Shown here in pieces: positions 2,911 through 45,330 of a DNA stretch of 64,000 bases. Under the pieces are notes generated by a model. It was not told where the DNA came from and made no database searches. It was given only the letters and a program-made list of their open reading frames with translations. Origin of the DNA: Microcystis wesenbergii NRERC-220 (GTDB lineage: Bacteria; Cyanobacteriota; Cyanobacteriia; Cyanobacteriales; Microcystaceae). The position numbers and the translations under genes were made by a program. Position 1 is the stretch's first letter, and each line of letters opens with the position of its first letter. The stretch is taken from the NCBI RefSeq assembly GCF_032027425.1, contig NZ_JAVSJA010000001.1, forward strand, positions 1,997,501-2,061,500, given 5' to 3'.

Positions 2911-3705
2911 ATGACTGCTGTTTCCGAGTGTTTTCGTTCTCTCCGTTCCCAGGGGAATTGTGCCTTAATTCCCTTTATTACTGCTGGTGATCCCGATTTG
3001 TCCACTACTGCCCAAGCTTTACGCATTTTAGACCGGGCAGGGGCCGATCTGATCGAGTTGGGGGTTCCCTATTCCGATCCTCTTGCGGATGGTCCGGTTA
3101 TTCAAGCGGCAGCCACCCGCGCTTTAAATCGGGGTGTCAAGTTGGAAGATGTGCTAGAAATCGTCAAAAATGCTCAGGGAGAGGTGAAAGCTCCCATTAT
3201 TCTCTTTACTTACTATAATCCCATCTATCATCGCGGGATAGATGTCTTTTTAGACCAAATAAAAGCAGCCGGGGTGAGTGGTTTGGTGGTTCCCGATTTA
3301 CCCCTAGAGGAAGCGGCAAGTCTGCTGCAACCGGCTGCCGCTAAGGGAATTGAAGTGATTTTATTGGTAGCGCCTACCAGTCCCCCGGAACGAATACAAG
3401 CGATCGCCCTGCAATCCCAAGGTTTTATTTATTTGGTTAGTGTCACGGGAGTGACGGGAATGCGTAACCAAGTGGCCACCAGAGTGGAGGAATTGCTCGA
3501 TTCTATCCGTTCTGTCACCGATAAACCCGTGGGGGTAGGATTTGGCATTTCTGACCCGACACAGGCACTACAGGTGAAAAACTGGGGTGCTGATGCGGTA
3601 ATTGTCGGCAGTGCCATGGTTAAACGTCTGGCCGATAATTCCCCCAGCGATGGGTTAAAATCCCTCGAAGAATTCTGCCGCAGTTTAAAACAGGCGATTC
3701 AGTGA
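2911..3705 (+). CDS. trpA: Tryptophan synthase alpha subunit
   Basis: 264 residues. It cleaves indole-3-glycerol phosphate to indole and glyceraldehyde 3-phosphate, passing indole to TrpB. Catalytic Glu49 lies in [10 protein letters not shown] and Asp60 in PLADGP. The phosphate-binding loop (VGFGISDP, then VIVGSAMV) is intact near residues 211-236. trpB lies 22 kb away on the opposite strand, so the two subunits are not co-transcribed, as is usual in cyanobacteria. The start ATG at 2911 gives the family-typical N terminus. Confidence 0.97.
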
Positions 3706-3787: not shown

Positions 3788-5155
3788 TTAAATTTGAGAG
3801 AGTTCGCGTTCACCCGCTAATTTCAGTGCAGAAGCGGCTTCAGGAATATAGGAAGTTTTCGTTTTAGAGACCATACCTCCCTGTTGTTCGAGTAATTGTT
3901 CTAGACGCATGGTACTCCAATCGGTCAGCATCGAGTTACCTAGCCGGGGGGCCAATTTGTTAATTTTCTCCACGGCGGAGATCCCCAATTCATCCATCTG
4001 TAGGGAAGCTAGATAGCAATCACAGGCGATGTCTATCTCTCCTAATCGTTCGTGACATTGGCCAGCCATAAACCAAGCGATCGCCATTCCAGGTGGGCCG
4101 AGTCTAGTAGCAGAACGATAGATTTTCGCCGCTTCTTCAAATTTATTTTGTTTTAGTAAAATTTCCCCCAGTTTCAGGCGATAACGAGAGTAAAGAGGTT
4201 CCATCGCCACCATTTTCTTCGCTCTCTCTTCGGCGAGATCAATATCGCCTAACCAGAGAGCTTCTTTTGTTCGGCTCTCGAAAACCGTTATTAGATTGTC
4301 GTAGGCGGAAAGTCGTTCGCTCTCGTTTTTACACTCGCGAGTTAGTTCTTCCGCTAGGGATTGACAGAGATCCATTTCACGGACAACCGTTTCTCGCTCA
4401 CCCCGCAGAAGTGGAGCGAAAACAGCCGCACGCTGGAAAGCACTGGTTAAATGTTTAAAATCGAAACGATCGAGGGAAGGTTCGAAGTGAGAGAGTGCCT
4501 CCTTGGCTACTTCTCGCCAATAGGCGACTGCGGCTATATCTCGAAAGGCAGTAGCCTGCAAAACGATTAATTCTACGGCTGCCCCGAAAACCACCAGGCT
4601 TTCTTTAGAAGCGTATTGAACGATTCGTTGAAAATCTTCCAGGTTTTCTGATGTACCGATATCTTCTTGACAAAGGATTTTAGACATCGCCAGGCTGTAA
4701 GCTAATCTAGCGAACGTGGGGTCTCTGCCAATGTTTTCATCAGTAATTGCGGGAATATAGCGAATAATCGCTTCATGAAAGCATAAACTCGATAATAAAT
4801 TAATTGTTTTCAGTTGAGTAGCGGGTGAAAGCTCACGATAATGCTCTAAATGCTCGCAAAGAACTCTCCAACGTTCGGTTCTCAACTCATCGGGGAGGGT
4901 GAGAGGATCGTTAATTGGGTATTGAAAAAGACTGGTCTCTCGAATCAATTGCTCTCGAAAAGAAGCGGGGTGAACGAGAGCAACCGGGGTAACAGATGAC
5001 GTATCGACACCTCGTACTTCGGAGACAAGATTTCGATAACTATAGTCAATTCCCTGAATATGCCAAGCTCCAGATTGATAGGGACTAAGATCGAAATAAG
5101 GACGATGGCTCCAAGTGATCGGAAAATCGTTTAAAAATAGCATACATATTCTCAA
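3788..5155 (-). CDS. Uncharacterised TPR-containing protein next to the precursor peptide gene
   Basis: 455 residues, not recognised as a named family. The first ~90 residues are not repeat-like and are rich in aromatic residues (begins MRICMLFLNDFPITWSHRPY). The middle is helical. Residues ~310-400 contain two to three TPR-like helical pairs (EAAKIYRSATRLGPPG; AWFMAGQCHERLGEIDIA). No signal peptide or membrane segment is visible, so it is probably cytoplasmic. It is the last gene in a minus-strand run downstream of the precursor peptide, separated from it by a perfect hairpin at 5239-5275. Position suggests a helper, immunity, leader-binding or regulatory role for the exported peptide, but nothing in its own sequence proves this. 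Confidence 0.7.
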   Translation of the reverse strand: MRICMLFLNDFPITWSHRPYFDLSPYQSGAWHIQGIDYSYRNLVSEVRGVDTSSVTPVALVHPASFREQLIRETSLFQYPINDPLTLPDELRTERWRVLCEHLEHYRELSPATQLKTINLLSSLCFHEAIIRYIPAITDENIGRDPTFARLAYSLAMSKILCQEDIGTSENLEDFQRIVQYASKESLVVFGAAVELIVLQATAFRDIAAVAYWREVAKEALSHFEPSLDRFDFKHLTSAFQRAAVFAPLLRGERETVVREMDLCQSLAEELTRECKNESERLSAYDNLITVFESRTKEALWLGDIDLAEERAKKMVAMEPLYSRYRLKLGEILLKQNKFEEAAKIYRSATRLGPPGMAIAWFMAGQCHERLGEIDIACDCYLASLQMDELGISAVEKINKLAPRLGNSMLTDWSTMRLEQLLEQQGGMVSKTKTSYIPEAASALKLAGERELSQI

Positions 5156-5238
5156 GAAATGCGATCTTTATCTGGTTGGTATTTCCACGATAGTCAACGG
5201 AGTATCTTGTTTGGCTGAACTACCGTGGAAACTAGGAG

Positions 5239-5275
5239 AAATACAGAGATAAAATACTGATTTATCTCTGTATTT
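5239..5275 (-). terminator. Perfect 15-bp hairpin after the precursor peptide gene
   Basis: AAATACAGAGATAAA (5239-5253), a 7-base loop, then its exact reverse complement (5261-5275). The stem is AT-rich and flanked by short T runs. It lies between the precursor copies and the TPR gene, so it could stabilise or partly end the short precursor message while allowing some read-through. Confidence 0.6.
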
Positions 5276-5285
5276 TATCAATCAG

Positions 5286-5372
5286 TTACATTTGCATATA
5301 ATAGCACCAACAACAACCGCCTACCACTTGACGCAAAGTTTTAAAAGCGGTGATGCTTTCTGGACTGTCGTT
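5286..5372 (-). pseudogene. Duplicated 3' part of the precursor peptide gene with an alternative core
   Basis: A 58-bp tandem copy (5316-5373) of 5398-5455, with one mismatch (5334 versus 5416), repeats the end of the leader. Read in frame from AAC at 5370-5372 it gives NDSPESITAFKTLRQVVGG, then nine residues CCWCYYMQM and TAA at 5286-5288. No start codon lies just upstream in this frame; a TAG is two codons before the copied segment. As drawn the copy cannot be translated alone. Either it is a displaced original core or a spare cassette that recombination could restore to the leader. The sequence facts are direct; the history is inferred. Confidence 0.7.
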
Positions 5373-5455
5373 AGCGGACTACCCATTTGGCAGCAGCACC
5401 GCCTACCACTTGACGTAAAGTTTTAAAAGCGGTGATGCTTTCTGGACTGTCGTTA
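5316..5455. repeat. Tandem duplication, 58 bp at 82-bp offset
   Basis: 5316-5373 and 5398-5455 are identical except for one base. The duplicated segment spans the leader C-terminal half through the GlyGly codons. The sequences just past the GlyGly codons differ completely, so the duplication boundary sits at the leader/core junction. Confidence 0.95.
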
Positions 5456-5529
5456 ACGGCATCGGTGCGAAGCTCGATAATTTCGTTAGTCACCGTGTTT
5501 TTGATCTCGTTGATTTTGATGTTAGCCAT
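5371..5529 (-). CDS. Double-glycine leader precursor peptide (RiPP/bacteriocin-like), 52 aa
   Basis: A short gene found by direct translation: ATG at 5527-5529, TAA at 5371-5373, with GGAG 10 bases before the start. It begins MANIKINEIKNTV. Residues 1-44 look like a charged leader ending in LRQVVGG, with Val at -4 and Leu at -7 from the cut site. The remaining core is AAAKWVVR (8 residues). A C39-type peptidase-ABC exporter, which cuts after GlyGly, is encoded 3.2 kb upstream in the same direction. No modifying enzyme I can name is adjacent. Leader and exporter match established double-glycine secretion logic; the identity of the mature product is unknown. Such short genes are easily missed. 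Confidence 0.75.
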   Translation of the reverse strand: MANIKINEIKNTVTNEIIELRTDAVNDSPESITAFKTLRQVVGGAAAKWVVR

Positions 5530-5630
5530 GAGATGTATTCTCCAAATTTTCGCTAAATGAATGAATCAAATTATTGATTCAAGAAAACCATAACAATTTT
5601 TCAACACCAGATCAACTATCAAAATCGAAC

Positions 5631-5665
5631 AAAAAGAACATAATTTAGTTATTTATGTTCTTTTT
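5631..5665. terminator. Perfect 13-bp hairpin with A/T runs upstream of the precursor gene
   Basis: AAAAAGAACATAA (5631-5643), a 9-base loop, then TTATGTTCTTTTT (5653-5665). It has the A-run/T-run form of a bidirectional terminator. It separates the precursor gene from the small frame at 5727-6008, implying that the precursor has its own promoter between about 5530 and 5630. Confidence 0.55.
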
Positions 5666-5726
5666 GAAAGACTATTTTTTACAAAAACATCATCAAAACG
5701 TAAGGATTCAGGTGCCTCAAATGCAG

Positions 5727-6008
5727 TCACAGAGCGGCTTCTAAAATCTCAGAACTCGCTAAACTAACAGTTTCATTCTCAATAAGCACGAAAATTAAGG
5801 CTTTCAGGGTTTCTGAATGAGAATGAGGATTTGGACATAATTCGCCTAAATGCTTACACAGCATGAGTTTGACTGCTTTTTGTATGGCCTGAATCCTTAC
5901 ATCAAAACCGATTAAACAACGGGCTTCCAAGCTATTTAAAGAAACAAAAATAAGTAATTTATGTACAAAAAACTCTGAACCTGTCTTGTTGGAAGCAAAG
6001 AGAACCAA
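5727..6008 (-). CDS. Hypothetical protein, 93 aa
   Basis: Not recognised. The frame is open between the YgiT-type gene and the precursor peptide gene, on the same strand. It contains two Cys (SLEARCLIGFDV; KLMLCKHLGELC) and is moderately hydrophobic, without a clear signal peptide or motif. No good Shine-Dalgarno is obvious before the ATG. It may be a small member of the peptide locus or a chance frame in AT-rich DNA. Confidence 0.35.
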   Translation of the reverse strand: MVLFASNKTGSEFFVHKLLIFVSLNSLEARCLIGFDVRIQAIQKAVKLMLCKHLGELCPNPHSHSETLKALIFVLIENETVSLASSEILEAAL

Positions 6009-6205
6009 CCAAGCTAACTTAATTGAGTTATTTATTTTTTAAATTAACTGGGAATTCTGTTAATGAATAAATTCAGTAATTTTTAAAAGTGTATGTATTA
6101 AAAATCACTTTGTTGGTTTTTATGCTGAATAAGCTCACTCAAGAATAATCGGATTATTGGTATTTTATTAATCCATATTGTATTAATCTTATAGTAAAAT
6201 AATCC

Positions 6206-6295
6206 GTAGGTTGGGTTAAACGAAGTGCACCCCAACACAAAACATGAAGAATAATAGGGGGATGATGTTGGGTTTCATGCTTCAACCCAACCTAC
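6206..6295. repeat. 90-bp element with perfect 12-bp terminal inverted repeats
   Basis: Starts GTAGGTTGGGTT (6206-6217) and ends AACCCAACCTAC (6284-6295). The interior contains a further 'gttgggttt' block. It overlaps the end of the YgiT-type gene and supplies its stop. It shares its end motif with the repeats at 45.5-51 kb. Confidence 0.8.
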
Positions 6296-6479
6296 AAAAT
6301 AGGCGATCAGCCTTCTGTAAAACTTCCGCAGTGACCGACTCGCTTAGATAATACTCCCCGCAATTCTGACAGATATCCGCAGGGACTTGTTTTAAAATCA
6401 CGATACAATTATCTCTCTCTAAAGTAACGGTAACAAAACCCGATCGAGTCGTACCGTGTTTACAGATCACACATTCCAT
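6282..6479 (-). pseudogene. YgiT-type zinc-finger antitoxin-like protein, C terminus cut by a repeat
   Basis: 65 residues. The paired CxxC motifs of YgiT/MqsA zinc-finger domains are present (Cys3/Cys6 and Cys37/Cys40, in CVIC and CQNC), with the usual ICQNCGEYYLS context. After VLQKADR the frame enters the 90-bp inverted-repeat element, so the last four residues and the stop are foreign. Relatives usually continue further. No adjacent toxin gene is visible. It looks like a leftover of a toxin-antitoxin pair that now sits inside the peptide locus; the zinc finger itself may still fold. Confidence 0.75.
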
Positions 6480-6536: not shown

Positions 6537-7271
6537 TTAATTACTAAACTCGTATTCTATCTCTTGAATCTTCTCCTTTACCCAGCCGTTAAACAAATCA
6601 ACACCGATTTTCAGAGCCAACTCCTCGGTTAATTTTGGTTTAAGGATTTCCTCGACAAAAATCAGGTGAAAACCCCGATCGCCTTGCAGCGGTTTCAACA
6701 ATCGAGAAGAATCCGATGCGAAAATTGCGGACGAAAGATTCGGTCGTAAATCCTTACGGTAAACAGTACCGCGATAACCCCCCTTGCGTCGTAATTCCAC
6801 ATCCTCGATATAGCGATGCGCTACTTCCTGAAAGCTGATTTCCTCCTCCTGAATCGATTCATACAACTCCTCCGCCATCGCCTGATCTGCTAACACTACC
6901 TCATAGATCACCGCGCCAGTATAATCTAGCTGGTGTTCCACAAAATAGGATTCAATTTTGTCTGCGAAAAGATGTTCGGCTAATTTACCCGATAGTAAAT
7001 TGAATTGAACGATCTCCTCGAAATCATCTAGGGATAAGCCCTGTTTTTCCAACCAATTCCATGTATCTTTGGCGTTATGTAATTCATTGGCGAGACGGAA
7101 TTGATCGGCCGCCTGTTGTAACTCGTCAGTCGTGTTTTTAATCCCCGCTGCCGTGGCGGTTTCGGTGATGATTTTCCGACCGATAATTCCCTCGACTATT
7201 TCGGGAACTTTCCCCGATAGCTTAAGCTGTTGGATAAGGTCTTGATTGCTGATGGTGATACTATGGGACAT
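6537..7271 (-). CDS. PpiC/SurA-like peptidylprolyl isomerase of the peptide-export locus
   Basis: 244 residues, beginning with a helical SurA-N-like part and followed by a rotamase (parvulin) domain at about 120-215 (QEVAHRYIED, then RKGGYRGTVYRKDL and LQGDRGFHLIFVEE). No signal peptide is seen, so it probably acts in the cytoplasm, perhaps holding the peptide unfolded for export. It follows the HlyD gene by 18 bp and is co-directional with the exporter. PpiC-like proteins paired with HlyD and peptidase-ABC exporters recur in cyanobacterial peptide loci (general knowledge). Substrate is inferred. Confidence 0.85.
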   Translation of the reverse strand: MSHSITISNQDLIQQLKLSGKVPEIVEGIIGRKIITETATAAGIKNTTDELQQAADQFRLANELHNAKDTWNWLEKQGLSLDDFEEIVQFNLLSGKLAEHLFADKIESYFVEHQLDYTGAVIYEVVLADQAMAEELYESIQEEEISFQEVAHRYIEDVELRRKGGYRGTVYRKDLRPNLSSAIFASDSSRLLKPLQGDRGFHLIFVEEILKPKLTEELALKIGVDLFNGWVKEKIQEIEYEFSN

Positions 7272-7289: not shown

Positions 7290-8744
7290 CTACAGTTTTA
7301 ACCCATCTTTTTGCAGATCCTTAAAGGGATCGAGGATGTAATCGATCACCCGACGCTGACGGACGATCGCTTCTGCGGTAGCCGTATCCCCCGGATTGAG
7401 GGGAATACATTGATTTCCCTTTTGAATACAGGAGCGATCGAGTTGAATTTCTAGCTCGAAAACGTTAATTTTTCCGTTGGGCGTTTCCTTTTCGATCGCC
7501 GTCGGTGATTTCTTGGTGATCTTGCCGCCGATAATGCCGTAATCCTGAAAAGGATAGGCATCGAACTTGACTTTTATCGGCATACCGGCGCGGAGAAATT
7601 GACTTTGATCCGTGGGCATTTCTGCCTTGAGAATAAACCGCGATCCCTTCGGTGCTATCTCCGCAACCCGCGTTCCCGACTGCACCACCGCACCCGCGCG
7701 TTTAATCGGTAATGAAAAGATTGTGCCGTCGGTATTCGCCTTTAAAACCCTCTGACTTAGTTGGATTTGGAGCGCTTGCCGTTGGCTCTCGCTTTGGGCG
7801 ATTTCCGATGCCAGTGTTCCGATCTCCGTGTCTAGATTGTTAATCTGCTCCTGTATCCTTAAGAGTGCCAACTCGTTGGAATGGCGGAGACTTTGATAAC
7901 CCCGCTGCCGCTCCTGTAATTGCAGACGCGCTTGGGCGATATCGGCGCTCGTTTGTTGACTCGTCTGACGGTGGTTGCTTTCTAATTCCGCTAGTTTATG
8001 TTGATTTTCTTTTACCTCCGCTTTTCCCCGCTCGTAGAGTTGTTGGCGCTCCTTGGCATTGTCCTCACGCTCGATGAATTGCACCTCCGATATCGCGCCA
8101 TCCTCCCACGCTTTTCGGTAGCGATCGACTTCTTTTAAAGCCGTTTGATAACGACTTTTGAGAATCGGATAATCAGTCTGACTTTGTGCGAGGGCGGTTT
8201 TCGCTTGATTTACCCGCGCCTGTTGTTCTTCTAGGGATATTTTCGCTTTCTTGATTAATGCGTCCACATTCTCCCGCGCTTGTTCGATCGAGGCTTCTTT
8301 TTCCGCTGCTGCCGCGCGATTTTGTTGGCTTTGGGTGGTTAAAGAAATCTCTAACTGACTTTTGACAAGTTTCTGTTGGGAAAGACGACTTTTTTGTCCT
8401 TCTATTTTCTCCTCAATTTGTTGTATTTCCTTGCCGATTAATGAGGAATCTAGGGTTAAAATCGGTTGTCCTGCTTTCACCTCTTGGCCTTCACGGACAT
8501 AGATTTTTTCCACTTTTCCCGTCGCGATAGCATCGATTTTGACTGTTTCTCCTTGGGGTTCCAGTTTTCCTGGTCCGACACCCGTTTCATCGACTTTTGA
8601 GAATATCGCCCAGGGGAGAATGATCGAGACGAAAATAATCAGAAAATAGAGTAAACCACGCGTCCAGGGTAGGGGTAAAGTATCGATCAATTCCTTGGTC
8701 TGGAAAGACCAGTTATCGCGCTCTCTGTCTAGATTGGTGGTCAT
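7290..8744 (-). CDS. HlyD-family membrane fusion protein
   Basis: 484 residues. One N-terminal membrane helix (about 28-50) is followed by a lipoyl/biotinyl-like half (GKVEKIYVREGQEVKAGQP, about 92-110), a long coiled coil rich in Gln, Glu and Arg (about 120-330), the second lipoyl half (about 335-360) and a beta-barrel C terminus with a Cys pair (SCIQKGNQC). HlyD proteins bridge an inner-membrane ABC exporter and an outer-membrane channel, so the peptide is likely sent across both membranes. It lies only 2 bp from the exporter gene, so the two are certainly co-transcribed. Confidence 0.93.
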   Translation of the reverse strand: MTTNLDRERDNWSFQTKELIDTLPLPWTRGLLYFLIIFVSIILPWAIFSKVDETGVGPGKLEPQGETVKIDAIATGKVEKIYVREGQEVKAGQPILTLDSSLIGKEIQQIEEKIEGQKSRLSQQKLVKSQLEISLTTQSQQNRAAAAEKEASIEQARENVDALIKKAKISLEEQQARVNQAKTALAQSQTDYPILKSRYQTALKEVDRYRKAWEDGAISEVQFIEREDNAKERQQLYERGKAEVKENQHKLAELESNHRQTSQQTSADIAQARLQLQERQRGYQSLRHSNELALLRIQEQINNLDTEIGTLASEIAQSESQRQALQIQLSQRVLKANTDGTIFSLPIKRAGAVVQSGTRVAEIAPKGSRFILKAEMPTDQSQFLRAGMPIKVKFDAYPFQDYGIIGGKITKKSPTAIEKETPNGKINVFELEIQLDRSCIQKGNQCIPLNPGDTATAEAIVRQRRVIDYILDPFKDLQKDGLKL

Positions 8745-8746
8745 AG

Positions 8747-11413
8747 TTATTCACTCAATTGATTAGAGTTCAAATTACGGTAAATACCGGGACGGGCCAT
8801 TAATTCTTCGTGGGTTCCACTATCGAGTAATACCCCTCGATCGAGAACGAGAATACAATCTGCGTTCCGCACCGTAGAGAGGCGATGGGCGATAATCACC
8901 ATCGTGCGATTCTGCCGAATTTTCTGGAGATTTGTTTGAATAATCCGTTCCGATTCGGTATCGAGGTGGGAAGTGGCTTCATCGAGGATTAATAACCGCG
9001 GCTCTCCCATCAACGATCGAGCGATGGCGATTCGTTGTCTCTGTCCCCCGGAAAGTAGCCCTCCACCCTCGCCGATTTGAGTTTCGTACCCCATGGGCAG
9101 TGATTGAATAAACTCATGAATTCCCGCTAATTTCGCCGCTTCGATCACATTTTCTAGGGGGTGATCGGGATGACCTAAACTGATATTTTCCCGAATCGTG
9201 GAACCGAAGAGAAAAGTATCCTGATCGACGACTCCCACCTGTTGCCGGAGGGAACTGAGGGCGATCGTACTCAGATCGTAACCGTCGATCGATATCTTCC
9301 CATCGGTGGGGGGATAGAGGCCGATCAGTAATTTCGAGATCGTGGTTTTTCCCGAACCGCTCCGACCGACGATGGCAACGGTTTGACCGGGTAAAATTTC
9401 AAAACTGAGGTTTTCTAAAACATTCTGATCGCTGTCGGTGTGGTAGCGAAAGGTGACATTCTCAAAGCGAATATGTCCCTGTAATTCCGGGAGAAATTGA
9501 CGGGAAAGTTCCTCTAAATTCTCCTCCGGCTTTGCGTCTAGTACATCGTTAATGCGCTCGACGGCGATATTGACTTCTTGAAATTGCGTCCAGAGAACGG
9601 TTAAGCGTTGAAAAGGCGCGATGATCTGGGCAAAAAGCATATTAAAGGCGATCAATTGTCCGATCGATAATTGATTTTGAATCACTAGATAGGCACCGAA
9701 ACAGAGTAACCCCGTCGTCGCTAAAGATTCGATCAGATTACTGAATATCTGGAGATTATTGCCAATGATCTGCCCAGAGAAATTTTTCTTGACCTCCACC
9801 GAGAAAAGGTCTTCCCAGTGCCAACGGGTCGATCGCTCTGTGGCAGTAGATTTGACGGTACGAATACCGGTTAAAATCTCGATCAGGTAACTGCTTTCCT
9901 TAGCGATCGCCTGAAAAATATCCCGGGATATTCGCTGCAGAAAAGGGGTAGAAATTAACGCCAGCAGAAGGAACGGTGGCACGATCGCTAAACTGATGAG
10001 GGCTAATTGCCAGCTATAGCGGAACATCACCGCCACATACACGAAAACCGTTAATAAGTCAAGTAAAATCGAGAGAGCTTCCCCAGAGAGAAAACGCTGA
10101 ATCTTGCGATTTTCCCCGACGCGGGAAATAATATCGCCCACATAGCGGGACTCGAAATAACCGAGGGGAAGGCTGAGGGTATGGCGGATAAAACCGGTGA
10201 TTAATGCCGTATCGATGCGATTAGCGGTGTGATCGAGGAGATAGGCGCGTAAACCAGTAATTGCCACCCGAAAAACCCCGAAAATTAGCGCACCGATCCC
10301 CATCGCCCAAAGGGTAGTTAAGGACCCCTGCACGATTACCCGATCGAGGATTAACTGGGTGAAAATCGGCGTAATTAAGCCGAATATCTGGATAAAAAGC
10401 GAGGCGACGAAAATTTCCAGCAGTACGAACCAATGGGGTTCCAGTAAGCGATAAAACTGCCAGAGAGAGGTTTTATCCTCTTTCGTGTCCCGGAATTTCT
10501 GGTTCGGTTGGAGCAGCAGGGTGAATCCCGTCCATTTACTGGCGAATTCGGCACGACTTAGGGTTAATTGCCCGATCGCTGGATCGCCAATAATCACCTG
10601 TTTGGCGGTAATTTTCCAGATCACAACGAAGTGTTTGCCTTCCCAGTGAGCGGTCGCAACGCGCTCGCTACGCGAGACCGCCGGTAGGGGCTGTTTCCCT
10701 AATCCCTCTAGAGTCGCTTTTACCGGACGGGTGGAGAGGCCGATATTTTCCGCCGCGGTGATCAGTCCCGACAGGGTTGCCCCGTCGCGGTTGACGTTGG
10801 CCATTTCCCGCAAACGGTTGACGCTGATTCTTTTGCCCCAATAACGGGCGATCATGACTAAACCGGCCGCCCCGCAATCGGAGGCGGACTGTTGCTCGAA
10901 GAAGGGATAACGGCGGAGGGATTGCCCGATCCAGTGACCTAACCGCTGCGCTGGAGAGGGAAAATAGGCTCGATCGCTTTTTTTGTCCGTTTCTTCTGTC
11001 TTCGTCCCAAGAAGTTGATCAATTTCCCGCGCCCGTTGTAGTAATGTTTTTTTCAGGGCGGGGTGTTTTTTCAGGATCGGCTTCAGGGCGGACTCGGGGA
11101 TAAGAAGTAGTTCCGCCTTTGCGGAGACTCGAACCGAGTAGGGTGGTCTCTGAGCTACGCCGAAGAGCAGAAAACCCGATCGGGGAAAGAGGGAGAATTC
11201 CCCGAAAAATTCGCCGGTTTTGAGCGCAATCATCTCTTTTTGCTGCGAGTTCGCTATCCGAACTTTGCCGCCAACGACTAGGTATAATCCGGGCTGTAGG
11301 GGCAGTGTACCTGCTTCGGGAGAGAGGGTGATCGCCGTTTTCTGGAGACTCCGCCACTGGGTTTCGGACAGGAATTCCGGCCAGGGATTGACGAGGCTGT
11401 GAGTATCGAGCAT
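8747..11413 (-). CDS. C39 peptidase-containing ABC exporter with N-terminal cNMP-binding-like domain
   Basis: 888 residues from the ATG at 11413, chosen because it follows the HTH gene stop by 7 bp; an in-frame upstream ATG at 11509 would overlap that gene. Domains in order: cyclic-nucleotide-binding-like (about 1-135), C39 peptidase with Cys180 (SASDCGAAG), His261 (GKHFVV) and the following GDPA Asp, six-helix exporter domain (about 330-620), and ATPase with Walker A GRSGSGKTT (~682-690), signature LSGGQRQR (~785) and Walker B LLILDEATSHLD (~809). It should cut double-glycine leaders and export the core. Two short dispersed repeats sit in frame inside the gene (residues ~83-91 and ~245-255). 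Confidence 0.95.
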   Translation of the reverse strand: MLDTHSLVNPWPEFLSETQWRSLQKTAITLSPEAGTLPLQPGLYLVVGGKVRIANSQQKEMIALKTGEFFGEFSLFPRSGFLLFGVAQRPPYSVRVSAKAELLLIPESALKPILKKHPALKKTLLQRAREIDQLLGTKTEETDKKSDRAYFPSPAQRLGHWIGQSLRRYPFFEQQSASDCGAAGLVMIARYWGKRISVNRLREMANVNRDGATLSGLITAAENIGLSTRPVKATLEGLGKQPLPAVSRSERVATAHWEGKHFVVIWKITAKQVIIGDPAIGQLTLSRAEFASKWTGFTLLLQPNQKFRDTKEDKTSLWQFYRLLEPHWFVLLEIFVASLFIQIFGLITPIFTQLILDRVIVQGSLTTLWAMGIGALIFGVFRVAITGLRAYLLDHTANRIDTALITGFIRHTLSLPLGYFESRYVGDIISRVGENRKIQRFLSGEALSILLDLLTVFVYVAVMFRYSWQLALISLAIVPPFLLLALISTPFLQRISRDIFQAIAKESSYLIEILTGIRTVKSTATERSTRWHWEDLFSVEVKKNFSGQIIGNNLQIFSNLIESLATTGLLCFGAYLVIQNQLSIGQLIAFNMLFAQIIAPFQRLTVLWTQFQEVNIAVERINDVLDAKPEENLEELSRQFLPELQGHIRFENVTFRYHTDSDQNVLENLSFEILPGQTVAIVGRSGSGKTTISKLLIGLYPPTDGKISIDGYDLSTIALSSLRQQVGVVDQDTFLFGSTIRENISLGHPDHPLENVIEAAKLAGIHEFIQSLPMGYETQIGEGGGLLSGGQRQRIAIARSLMGEPRLLILDEATSHLDTESERIIQTNLQKIRQNRTMVIIAHRLSTVRNADCILVLDRGVLLDSGTHEELMARPGIYRNLNSNQLSE
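10648..10683. repeat. Palindromic short repeat inserted in frame in the exporter gene
   Basis: Around 'gcggtcgcaacgcgctcgct' (10652 onward) the two ends GCGGTC and GACCGC are inverted, with nested CGCG units. It encodes the extra residues VSRSERVAT between two parts of the C39 domain (LPA and AHWEGKHFVV) that are normally close together. The reading frame is kept. Confidence 0.6.
11143..11168. repeat. 26-bp dispersed repeat inside the exporter gene
   Basis: The 26 bases starting gtggtctctgagctacgccg are identical to 17470-17495, upstream of chlM. Within the exporter they encode the residues LLFGVAQRP in a cNMP-domain loop. The copy is in frame. Confidence 0.85.
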
Positions 11414-11420
11414 AGTTGTT

Positions 11421-11894
11421 TTAAGCTTTGGCTGAAGGAGAAAGATCGACGATGCGGAGCGGCTGTAGCTGTTTGCGGAGGCGATTGATGTGGGTGGGGG
11501 TGAGTGCAACCCCGAATTCTTTCTCTAGATGCCGCGCTAACCAAACTCCCGACCATCGCTTAAAGGAATAGCCGAAATCCCGGGGGGATTTACTAATCAG
11601 TTCCTTCAGGCGATCGAGGTAAGGTTGATCAACTTTTGAAGGGCGACCGCGGCGGTATTTTTGCCAGCGATCGATCTTGCCACTCTCGGCGATCAGTATC
11701 CATTTACTAGCGGTGGCGGCAGTACAATCGAGAAGCTTACGGATCTCGTTCTGGGATTTGCCCTCGTCAGCGAAAAGAATGATTTGAATCCGTTTGCGAT
11801 CAACATCAGAGATATTCGGTTCTGTTGAGATTTCGAGAAGTTGCTGACGTTGGGATGAGGATAGATATTTACCGGTGCTTGATGACATTGACAT
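11421..11894 (-). CDS. Helix-turn-helix protein (IS630-transposase-N-terminus-like) of the peptide locus
   Basis: 157 residues if started at the MSMSS Met (11894); an in-frame ATG at 11972 would add a poor hydrophobic Cys-rich tail. It consists of a helix-turn-helix (EGKSQNEIRKLLDCTAATASKWI), an arginine-rich hinge (KYRRGRPSKV) and a second winged-helix-like region (FKRWSGVWLARHLEKEFG), i.e. the DNA-binding half of an IS630-type transposase without the DDE catalytic half. It ends 7 bp before the exporter gene, in the same direction. Either a captured transposase domain now acting as a regulator of the locus, or a leftover; the intact frame and tight spacing favour a regulator. Confidence 0.75.
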   Translation of the reverse strand: MSMSSSTGKYLSSSQRQQLLEISTEPNISDVDRKRIQIILFADEGKSQNEIRKLLDCTAATASKWILIAESGKIDRWQKYRRGRPSKVDQPYLDRLKELISKSPRDFGYSFKRWSGVWLARHLEKEFGVALTPTHINRLRKQLQPLRIVDLSPSAKA

Positions 11895-12452
11895 AGCCTT
11901 TGCAACTATAAGTAAAAGCAGACAGCAGCAGGTCGGAGCGTTGAGGCAAGAAAGTTGTACTAAGTTGTACAATGGGCTGAATTCCCCGGGTGACGATCTC
12001 TTTCGCTGTCCTTAAATTATTATTTCGGCTGCAAAAGTGAACATTATGAAGTTTATTAAATCCGACATTCCGCAAATCTTCATATACTTTTATATATTTT
12101 TACATTCCCCAAGATGTTTTGACGAAAAACCTTCATTGTAGAACCTACTATTGAGAACATTTTCAATAATTGATTTTTTCTGAGAAAAAAAAAATACAAT
12201 TCTTAACCTTGATAAAAATCCATGATTGTAGCTATTGAATGTTAAGAAGTGCGAAAAGTGGGTAAATTGTTTTTCTCTCGCCCGATCAAACCTCTCTAAC
12301 ACCTAACCCCCATCACCCCATCACCCTATCTCCCCGCTGGCCACTGATAACTGATTGCTGACTACTCAAAATCGTTATGACTATGATATAGTTGTTAAGG
12401 AATGTAAAAATAGTTGCATTTTCCCAGAAACTAGATTAAGGAGATTAAAAGT
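11895..12452. other. Intergenic region, no gene seen
   Basis: AT-rich DNA between the divergent peptide locus and the peroxiredoxin gene, with no credible reading frame. A pyrimidine-rich block with 'catcaccc' units is at about 12310-12335. A -10-like TATGAT at 12382-12387 and an AAGGAG ribosome site near 12439 belong to the peroxiredoxin gene. No convincing -35 was found. Confidence 0.6.
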
Positions 12453-44487: not shown

Positions 44488-45108
44488 GTCTGTACTCCTT
44501 GGATTAGCAATTTTTCACCCCTATTTTATCCTAGCAGGGGTTGCCCGCGAAAGATAGGGCGGACAGCAGGTAGATAGGGCGATCGCAGACAATTCTTAAA
44601 TGTCAGATACCTGGCAAAAATCAAACATCTTCCCTTATGGGAGCAGGGAGTGGGGTGTAGGGTGTGGGGTGTGGGGTGTGTGAAATTTCCCTAAATCCCT
44701 ATCTCCCTATCTCCCTATCTCCCTATCTCCCTAAATCCCTGTCTCGGAGTCTCCTGACTCCCCAAAAGGAAAACGGCTCTCTTGGGTTTGGTGGGTAAAA
44801 TGTATTCTAAGATACAGTCTTGCCAGCGAGCGACTGGAACGAACCACAAAGACACAAAGGACACAAAGATTGATCGGTTCTATATAAGTTAAACTTATCA
44901 CACAAAGAATAAGAGAGCCGGAAAACTTCGTATCTCACAATTAATATAACTGCTATATCGGATTTTTGGCATAATTAATTTTTCAAGGATAAAAAACCTA
45001 GAAATCAGATTTTAGGAATGTAAACAAGTTGAATATCGATTTTAGGCGTTGCTGAATCAAGGTATTAATGCCAACTGTGCAGGTTCCCGTGCAAAAGTTA
45101 GTTTGGGT
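44488..45108. other. Intergenic region with microsatellites
   Basis: No gene found. Contains a ggggtgt/ggggtgtg simple repeat at about 44652-44682, 'tccctatc' tandem repeats at about 44697-44735, and AT-rich DNA beyond. Some bases near 45000-45108 may belong to the lost 3' half of the RAYT gene. Confidence 0.6.
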
Positions 45109-45330
45109 CTAGGTTTTAAGAAATTCCACCAAAAAAAATTCAGATCTCAAATCAGGAACGCCTAAAATGAAAATGGCATCGATTGTGAATGGGTGACGTT
45201 GCATAACGTAGCGAAATGCTTCTCGCAAGAGGGAGATGTTTTCGGGTTCGCACAAGAATTTTTGACGCTTGTGGGTGACAAGAGTAAAAAAGTAAGTTCC
45301 TCCCTCAATTTTTGCCCTTCGATACTGCAT
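45109..45330 (-). pseudogene. REP-associated tyrosine transposase (RAYT, IS200-like), truncated
   Basis: The first ~56 residues (MQYRRAKIEGGTYFFTLVTH; LLREAFRYVMQRHPFTIDAIFIL) are the RAYT N terminus. The protein then switches to unrelated sequence exactly where the HUH motif (PDHLH) should follow, so the catalytic centre is gone. Lies at the edge of a region with many ~90-bp inverted-repeat elements, the kind of sequence such enzymes mobilise. Confidence 0.85.

What the first reader, a model, noticed from the sequence alone, without database searches (positions are those of the whole stretch)
5286..5529. Two alternative cores behind the same leader end: AAAKWVVR and CCWCYYMQM
Seen: a 58-bp copy (one mismatch, 82-bp offset) of the leader's C-terminal half lies just after the precursor stop, and beyond the shared GlyGly it encodes CCWCYYMQM then TAA. 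The copy has no start and a TAG upstream. Inference: unequal recombination at the leader/core junction replaced the expressed core and displaced another. This would be a cassette-like mechanism for peptide diversification. The Cys-Cys-Trp-Cys-Tyr-Tyr core looks more like a post-translationally modified peptide than the expressed one.
Basis: partly seen in the sequence, partly recalled or inferred. Interest (0 to 1): 0.88.

Follow-up and report, generated by a model that had tools for sequence, protein, structure and literature searches.

The report
Fused remnants of two peptide genes
Next to a peptide exporter in a Microcystis cyanobacterium, two neighbouring genes for short exported peptides appear to have been fused by a deletion, so one peptide is still encoded behind a full leader while the other survives as a headless remnant; it illustrates how quickly such peptides are remodelled, but it does not look like a working switch.

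Summary
The last 62 bp of the leader occur twice on the minus strand (5398-5459, 5316-5377; 97%, 82 bp apart). Copy 1 leads to AAAKWVVR, copy 2 to CCWCYYMQM; copy 2 has no ATG, an in-frame TAG before it, and lies in the +1 frame.

The upstream half (leader, AAAKW) matches a relative whose core begins AAAAKW; the flank behind copy 2 matches that of the last gene of a three-gene tandem array in another. The join lies inside core 1 and mid-leader 2, not at the leader/core boundary. Best reading: two tandem precursor genes collapsed by deletion; the second core is a relic. No further leader copy was found in this genome.

Both core types recur: 18 genomes outside Microcystis have a related TPR gene with a short double-Gly precursor upstream; 17 of 18 cores hold Trp, 14 as KW or CW. 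In Microcystis the core end is often disturbed by mobile DNA; two array units differ at 5 positions, 4 within the 24-nt core. The setting is the known cyanobacterial C39-exporter "bacteriocin" cluster; no curated family matched the precursor.

The parts
5371..5529 (-). Precursor ORF with full leader (52 aa); leader 5398-5529, core AAAKWVVR 5374-5397, stop TAA 5371-5373
   Evidence: leader conserved in 5 further Microcystis genes
5398..5459 (-). Repeat copy 1: second half of the intact leader
5316..5377 (-). Repeat copy 2: headless second half of a second leader (no ATG, TAG upstream, +1 frame)
5286..5315 (-). Second core CCWCYYMQM plus TAA
5378..5397 (-). Core-1 remnant and join: first 15 nt (5383-5397) align with the G008 core start AAAAKW (one 3-nt gap); 5 nt unassigned; leader homology resumes at 5377
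5156..5285 (-). 3' flank with hairpin arms 5239-5253/5261-5275; aligns with the flank of the last array gene in G001
5530..5699 (-). Upstream region shared by the six Microcystis leaders; contains inverted repeat 5630-5643/5653-5666; no promoter-like site above chance was found
3788..5143 (-). TPR-repeat protein; in Microcystis found in the same 4 of 12 genomes as the closely matching leader
   Evidence: Pfam TPR_16 7.7e-14
6537..7271 (-). PpiC/SurA-type rotamase (resembles TIGR04500 'putative peptide maturation', 69 bits, below its 180-bit cut-off)
7290..8744 (-). HlyD-type adaptor
8747..11509 (-). C39 peptidase ABC exporter with N-terminal cNMP-binding-like domain
11421..11972 (-). HTH protein overlapping the exporter start; also beside the exporter in six other Microcystis loci and in L074, L075
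6282..6479 (-). YgiT-type zinc-finger (antitoxin-like) ORF between operon and precursor; also inside the G001 tandem unit

Best explanation
The locus is what remains of at least two tandem double-Gly precursor genes downstream of a C39-exporter operon. A deletion with almost no homology at the join (about 1 nt, judged against the G008 core) joined the inside of core 1 (AAAKWVV) to the middle of the leader of gene 2. Gene 1 keeps its upstream region, start and full leader and now ends in a truncated, partly out-of-frame core, AAAKWVVR. Gene 2 lost its upstream region, start and first half-leader, and its core CCWCYYMQM is an untranslated relic. Shown: repeat, frames, similarity of the two halves to different relatives, a tandem array in a relative. 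Inferred: that the window's own ancestor had the array, that the relic is silent, that the exporter cleaves after GlyGly.
For: The upstream half aligns with G008 up to 15 nt into the core (AAAAKW). From copy 2 on, the window aligns with G001 from mid-leader of its third gene through the TPR gene (one gapped alignment, 85.5% over 1595 columns; the cores themselves differ); the leader half of copy 2 is about equally like every leader, so the 3' flank carries this argument. G001 has three precursors in tandem, 1229 bp apart. Copy 2 has the usual GCT (AAND) where copy 1 has a private GTT. No further leader copy in the genome.
Against: No strain with the uncollapsed pair was found. The only same-species genome held (G011, 250 contigs) has no leader match and no close operon. 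The G001 array contains an ISL3 fragment and may be a lineage-specific amplification. G008's AAAAKW gene has leader end VAGG, the window VVGG, so some conversion or recurrent change is also needed. Only 4 Microcystis genomes inform this.
Confidence: 0.66

Rival explanations
1. A single precursor gene ending in CCWCYYMQM received an insertion: a donor allele (leader end plus AAAKW core) entered by homologous recombination on the leader and left by a template switch back to mid-leader. Same final DNA, different history.
For: Both window copies share the VVGG codons GTGGTAGGC; the AKW gene of G008 has other codons there.
Against: Needs a donor and two events; a tandem array is seen in a relative.
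Confidence: 0.2
2. One reading: recurrent cassette exchange at the leader/core junction diversifies the peptide.
For: Divergence between genomes starts right after GlyGly; G001 units 1 and 2 differ at 5 of 1229 positions, 4 in the 24-nt core, P = 7e-7 if random; Prochloron precedent of 24-bp core cassettes (PMC3062557, passages seen).
Against: Breakpoints here are not at the junction; no store of copies with leader homology; several core ends are touched by IS/MITE repeats; G001 unit 3 differs from unit 2 already in the leader's second half (6 positions); leader end and core class show only three of four combinations.
Confidence: 0.09
3. The second core is still made, by re-initiation at TTG/GTG or by +1 frameshifting at CGC-TAA.
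For: The second frame is open to CCWCYYMQM and its stop; one relic-specific change is TTA to TTG.
Against: No ATG and no Shine-Dalgarno-like sequence close to the TTG (my reading); the first half of the leader is missing.
Confidence: 0.03
4. Assembly artefact.
For: Short direct repeat; only this assembly has it among the 12 Microcystis genomes.
Against: A mis-join at a simple repeat would not create two different cores; the assembly is listed as 100% complete, 0.05% contaminated, 2 contigs.
Confidence: 0.02

Closest known systems
Cyanobacterial bacteriocin gene clusters, groups I/II of Wang, Fewer and Sivonen 2011 (PMC3140520; Results section read)
   Same: Long C39 ABC exporter with CAP_ED-like domain, HlyD, SurA/rotamase, nearby double-Gly precursors in arrays with little core conservation; authors report frequent rearrangements partly due to transposases; they list M. 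aeruginosa NIES-843 with one group I and one group II cluster
   Different: The words TPR and tetratricopeptide do not occur in its main text; short Trp cores and a collapsed pair are not mentioned in the Results read; its supplements were not seen
Prochloron cyanobactin core cassettes (PMC3062557, passages seen)
   Same: Near-identical flanks, very different 24-bp cores
   Different: Clean replacement of the core rather than deletion or IS insertion; cyanobactin pathway (no such enzymes seen among the genes scanned here)
NHLP / Nif11-type precursors (PMC2887384, passages seen)
   Same: Conserved leader ending in GlyGly, hypervariable core, C39-type exporter
   Different: The precursor reaches no NCBIfam cut-off and has no Pfam match
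EbfG peptides and PteB in Synechococcus elongatus (PMC4997328, passages seen)
   Same: Small GG-motif proteins whose efficient secretion needs a C39-type peptidase transporter; role in biofilm shown there
   Different: No sequence comparison with EbfG or PteB was made here

Membership tests
Group I/II cyanobacterial bacteriocin cluster | C39 peptidase ABC exporter with N-terminal nucleotide-binding domain | tested here: met
   Peptidase_C39 2.4e-36, ABC_membrane 2e-49, ABC_tran 9.2e-35; cNMP_binding 1.5e-5 but 25.3 bits, just under its 27.5 cut-off
Group I/II cyanobacterial bacteriocin cluster | HlyD and SurA/rotamase genes | tested here: met
   HlyD_3 1.7e-18, Rotamase 4e-11
Group I/II cyanobacterial bacteriocin cluster | Extra modification genes that separate II from I | tested here: inconclusive
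   Only a TPR protein and a YgiT-type ORF among the genes scanned; paper's domain tables not seen
Double-Gly exported peptide | Leader ending GG with hydrophobic -4 and -7 | tested here: met
   V-4, L-7 here; L, V or I at -4 and F at -7 in the MAEIKIN-type relatives. The rule itself is recalled
Double-Gly exported peptide | Cleavage and export by the C39 exporter | not testable with these tools
   needs mass spectrometry
NHLP or Nif11 precursor | Match to the family model | tested here: not met
   only an unrelated 13-bit hit in NCBIfam and no Pfam hit at E <= 1
RiPP | Post-translationally modified core | not testable with these tools
   no established modifying enzyme among the 8 proteins scanned with Pfam and 7 with NCBIfam, though PpiC resembles TIGR04500 'putative peptide maturation' below cut-off; rest of the window not scanned
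Cassette-switching system | Silent donor copies elsewhere in the genome | tested here: not met
   only two leader matches in the genome, both here; donors without leader sequence would be missed
Cassette-switching system | Exchange at the leader/core boundary | tested here: not met
   join is in core 1 and mid-leader 2

The most novel reading that the evidence does not exclude
In Microcystis the core-coding end of this exported Trp peptide is a diversification site: the leader and upstream region are held nearly constant while tandem duplication, deletion, ISL3/MITE insertion and concentrated base changes keep replacing the core, and the 62-bp direct repeat here is a metastable intermediate whose recombination would change which peptide is exported within a population.
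Probability: 0.12. Interest if true: 0.75.

Novelty: new variant of a known kind. Interest (0 to 1): 0.42.

Why it matters
It turns an odd repeat into a record of how exported-peptide genes are remodelled, and it points to a family, a TPR protein paired with short Trp-bearing double-Gly peptides, whose precursor matched no curated family here and whose sequence strings were not found in the open-access papers searched (topic searches, listings seen). The G001 array, with 4 of 5 differences between two units inside a 24-nt core, makes the question of how core hypervariability arises testable within one genome.

Tried and rejected
Simple 82-bp tandem duplication: rejected, because the sequences behind the two leader ends are unrelated. 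Store of silent leader-bearing copies: not found. Four-combination test for exchange at the leader/core border: only three of four (VV-AKW, VA-AKW, VV-CC), so no proof. Viral contigs and plasmids gave no relative. The one genome-contig scan gave two loci only, M. viridis FACHB-1342 (contig length equal to G007 C83) and a Desmonostoc MAG (contig length equal to G235 C63); it missed other genomes that the genome search found, so it was not exhaustive. PHROGs: nothing for the TPR protein, one weak hit (E 0.03) for the precursor. PDB profile search: the 60 rows shown of 72 align only over the TPR repeats. Promoter and terminator scan 5150-6300: 6 promoter-like sites against 4.3 expected, none just upstream of the precursor on its strand, and no terminator-like site. 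Selection in genus g129 (family of G121): in 10 pairs the 13-codon core has 0 (6 pairs) or 1 (4 pairs, all with L091) nonsynonymous codon differences, the 41-codon leader 1-6; consistent with a constrained core, but few and related sequences. The window leader has three private changes, all amino-acid changing, which would fit relaxed constraint on the expressed gene as well.

Full report
Observation. On the minus strand a 52-aa ORF (5371-5529) has a leader ending in GlyGly and the core AAAKWVVR. A 62-nt stretch of its leader end (5398-5459) recurs at 5316-5377 with two mismatches (self-BLAST E 2.9e-25). After the second GlyGly the frame reads CCWCYYMQM and TAA. The second copy has no ATG, a TAG upstream, and lies one base out of frame with the first. 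The TAA that ends AAAKWVVR is itself leader sequence read out of frame. A whole-genome search found only these two leader matches at E <= 1.

Surroundings. The gene lies downstream of HTH, C39-peptidase ABC exporter, HlyD and PpiC/SurA-type genes and a YgiT-type ORF, and upstream of a TPR protein gene, all on the minus strand. Of 12 Microcystis genomes examined, 7 have a full PpiC at 93% identity or more, 4 have the full TPR gene and a fifth (G011) a fragment. Six of 12 have a leader match at E <= 1: the same 4 strongly (best E <= 1e-20), G010 at 0.0015, a related leader without TPR gene, and G006 at 0.41, where no precursor of this pattern was read. No promoter-like site above chance and no terminator-like site was found.

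Comparison inside the genus. Six full leaders in four genomes are nearly identical, as are about 170 bases upstream, and diverge right after GlyGly. Cores: AAAKWVVR (window), AAAAKWTVKWKVAVK (G008), CCRWCCCSSQSVAVGSIPIM (G007), TMAANFFY, TIGATSFY and RGQWRPR (G001, three tandem genes). The window's upstream part aligns with G008 to 15 nt into the core. From copy 2 on it aligns with G001 from mid-leader of the third gene through the TPR gene in one gapped alignment (85.5%). The simplest history is a two-gene array collapsed by a deletion from core 1 into leader 2. Against the G008 core about one base could be shared at the join, so it looks illegitimate rather than homologous; the window's own lost bases are unknown.

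Mobile DNA at the same spot. In G001 copy 2 the core end and stop overlap the antisense end of an ISL3 transposase (PF01610, 3.6e-8); copy 1 differs from it there by a few bases and was not tested separately. In G007 a multi-copy repeat starts about 42 nt into the core (12 of 12 genomes hold matches, 12-37 each). In G008 multi-copy repeats start about 30 nt after the stop (12 of 12 genomes, 13-50 each), so its core itself is not shown to be touched. These counts are lower bounds, as scoring was limited to 40 candidates in most genomes. In G011, listed as the same species, the TPR gene is reduced to a C-terminal piece close to a transposase-like ORF (that label is recalled). So the core end is rebuilt often, but much of this may be decay rather than adaptive change.

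A point in favour of diversification. G001 units 1 and 2 (1229 bp) differ at five positions, four of them in the 24-nt core and all four amino-acid changing; the chance of at least 4 of 5 falling there at random is 7e-7. One clustered event such as a short conversion tract would also explain it. Unit 3 differs from unit 2 at 6 positions in the leader's second half and one upstream before the core diverges, so the leader is not untouched.

The wider family. TPR homologues at E <= 1e-30 were found in 16 of 217 genomes of the family of G121, 10 of 291 of the order and 8 of 386 of the phylum; the sets overlap. Over these calls there are 18 genomes outside Microcystis (one, G756, with a stop inside the matched stretch), and in each a short GG precursor lies just upstream: 14 with a MAEIKIN-like leader and 4 with a different leader. 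The exporter genes lie nearby in L074, L075 and L076 but were not found in the 14 kb of L073; the others were not examined that widely. The core contains Trp in 17 of 18 (not G619), as KW or CW in 14 of 18. With near-identical cores collapsed, 11 of 12 have Trp (about 2 expected from the Trp content of the window's operon proteins) and 8 of 12 have KW/CW (2.4 expected on shuffling, P = 5e-5). The motif was chosen after seeing the cores, and the genomes are related, so these numbers are descriptive. Of the seven Microcystis cores at this leader, five hold Trp (two KW, one CW, one RW, one QW); TMAANFFY and TIGATSFY have none, nor has the G010 core. Both window cores fit the repertoire. No established peptide-modifying enzyme was found among the proteins scanned around the precursor; whether the peptide is modified is open, and the TPR protein (receptor, chaperone, or partner of maturation) is unassigned.

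Literature. Wang et al. 2011 (PMC3140520, Results read) describe this cluster type. A 2026 review of Microcystis secondary metabolism (PMC12838216, passages seen) has no occurrence of bacteriocin or C39. Searches gave no paper, by listing, that describes this precursor or its TPR partner; most subscription papers are not held.

Identity of genomes. G007 C83 has the contig length of M. viridis FACHB-1342 contig49, which makes the genus Microcystis. G001 has the length I recall for M. aeruginosa NIES-843; that is recalled, not from a call.

Verdict. It is an instructive scar in a known kind of exported-peptide cluster, with a possibly undescribed TPR/Trp-peptide family behind it.

Noticed in passing
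L012:10477-13362 (G001): Tandem 1229-bp units, three precursors; between them lie an ISL3 fragment, the end of ppiC and a YgiT ORF; differences between units 1 and 2 concentrate in the core.
   Followed up: yes
L083, L092, L093, L094, upstream of the TPR gene: Precursors with another leader (TELSFEAMETI[AS]GG) but again KW or CCW cores in three of four (L094 has no Trp), beside TPR homologues; in L092 and L093 an ORF that reads like a C39 peptidase (recalled, not scanned) follows directly.
   Followed up: partly
L010:12309-13956, L070:8814-10999, L071:7275-9161: Nif11-like precursors (Pfam Nif11 confirmed in L010) and a radical-SAM/SPASM enzyme (Pfam confirmed in L010 and L071) near the same operon in other Microcystis; not seen in the window between the TPR gene and the ORF at 2911-3705 (trpA by recall).
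   Followed up: partly
L010:6363-6865 and window 6282-6479: G008 has a DUF4258 ORF next to the YgiT-type ORF, like a toxin-antitoxin pair; the window keeps only a shorter YgiT-type ORF.
   Followed up: partly
window 5630-5666: Perfect 14-bp inverted repeat upstream of the precursor, in the block shared by the six Microcystis leaders (less perfect in the relatives); possible regulatory site.
   Followed up: no
window 45045-45162: A copy of a multi-copy MITE-like repeat that also sits downstream of the G007 core.
   Followed up: no
L069:258-1398 (G011): Same-species genome with only the C-terminal end of the TPR gene left, close to a transposase-like ORF.
   Followed up: partly
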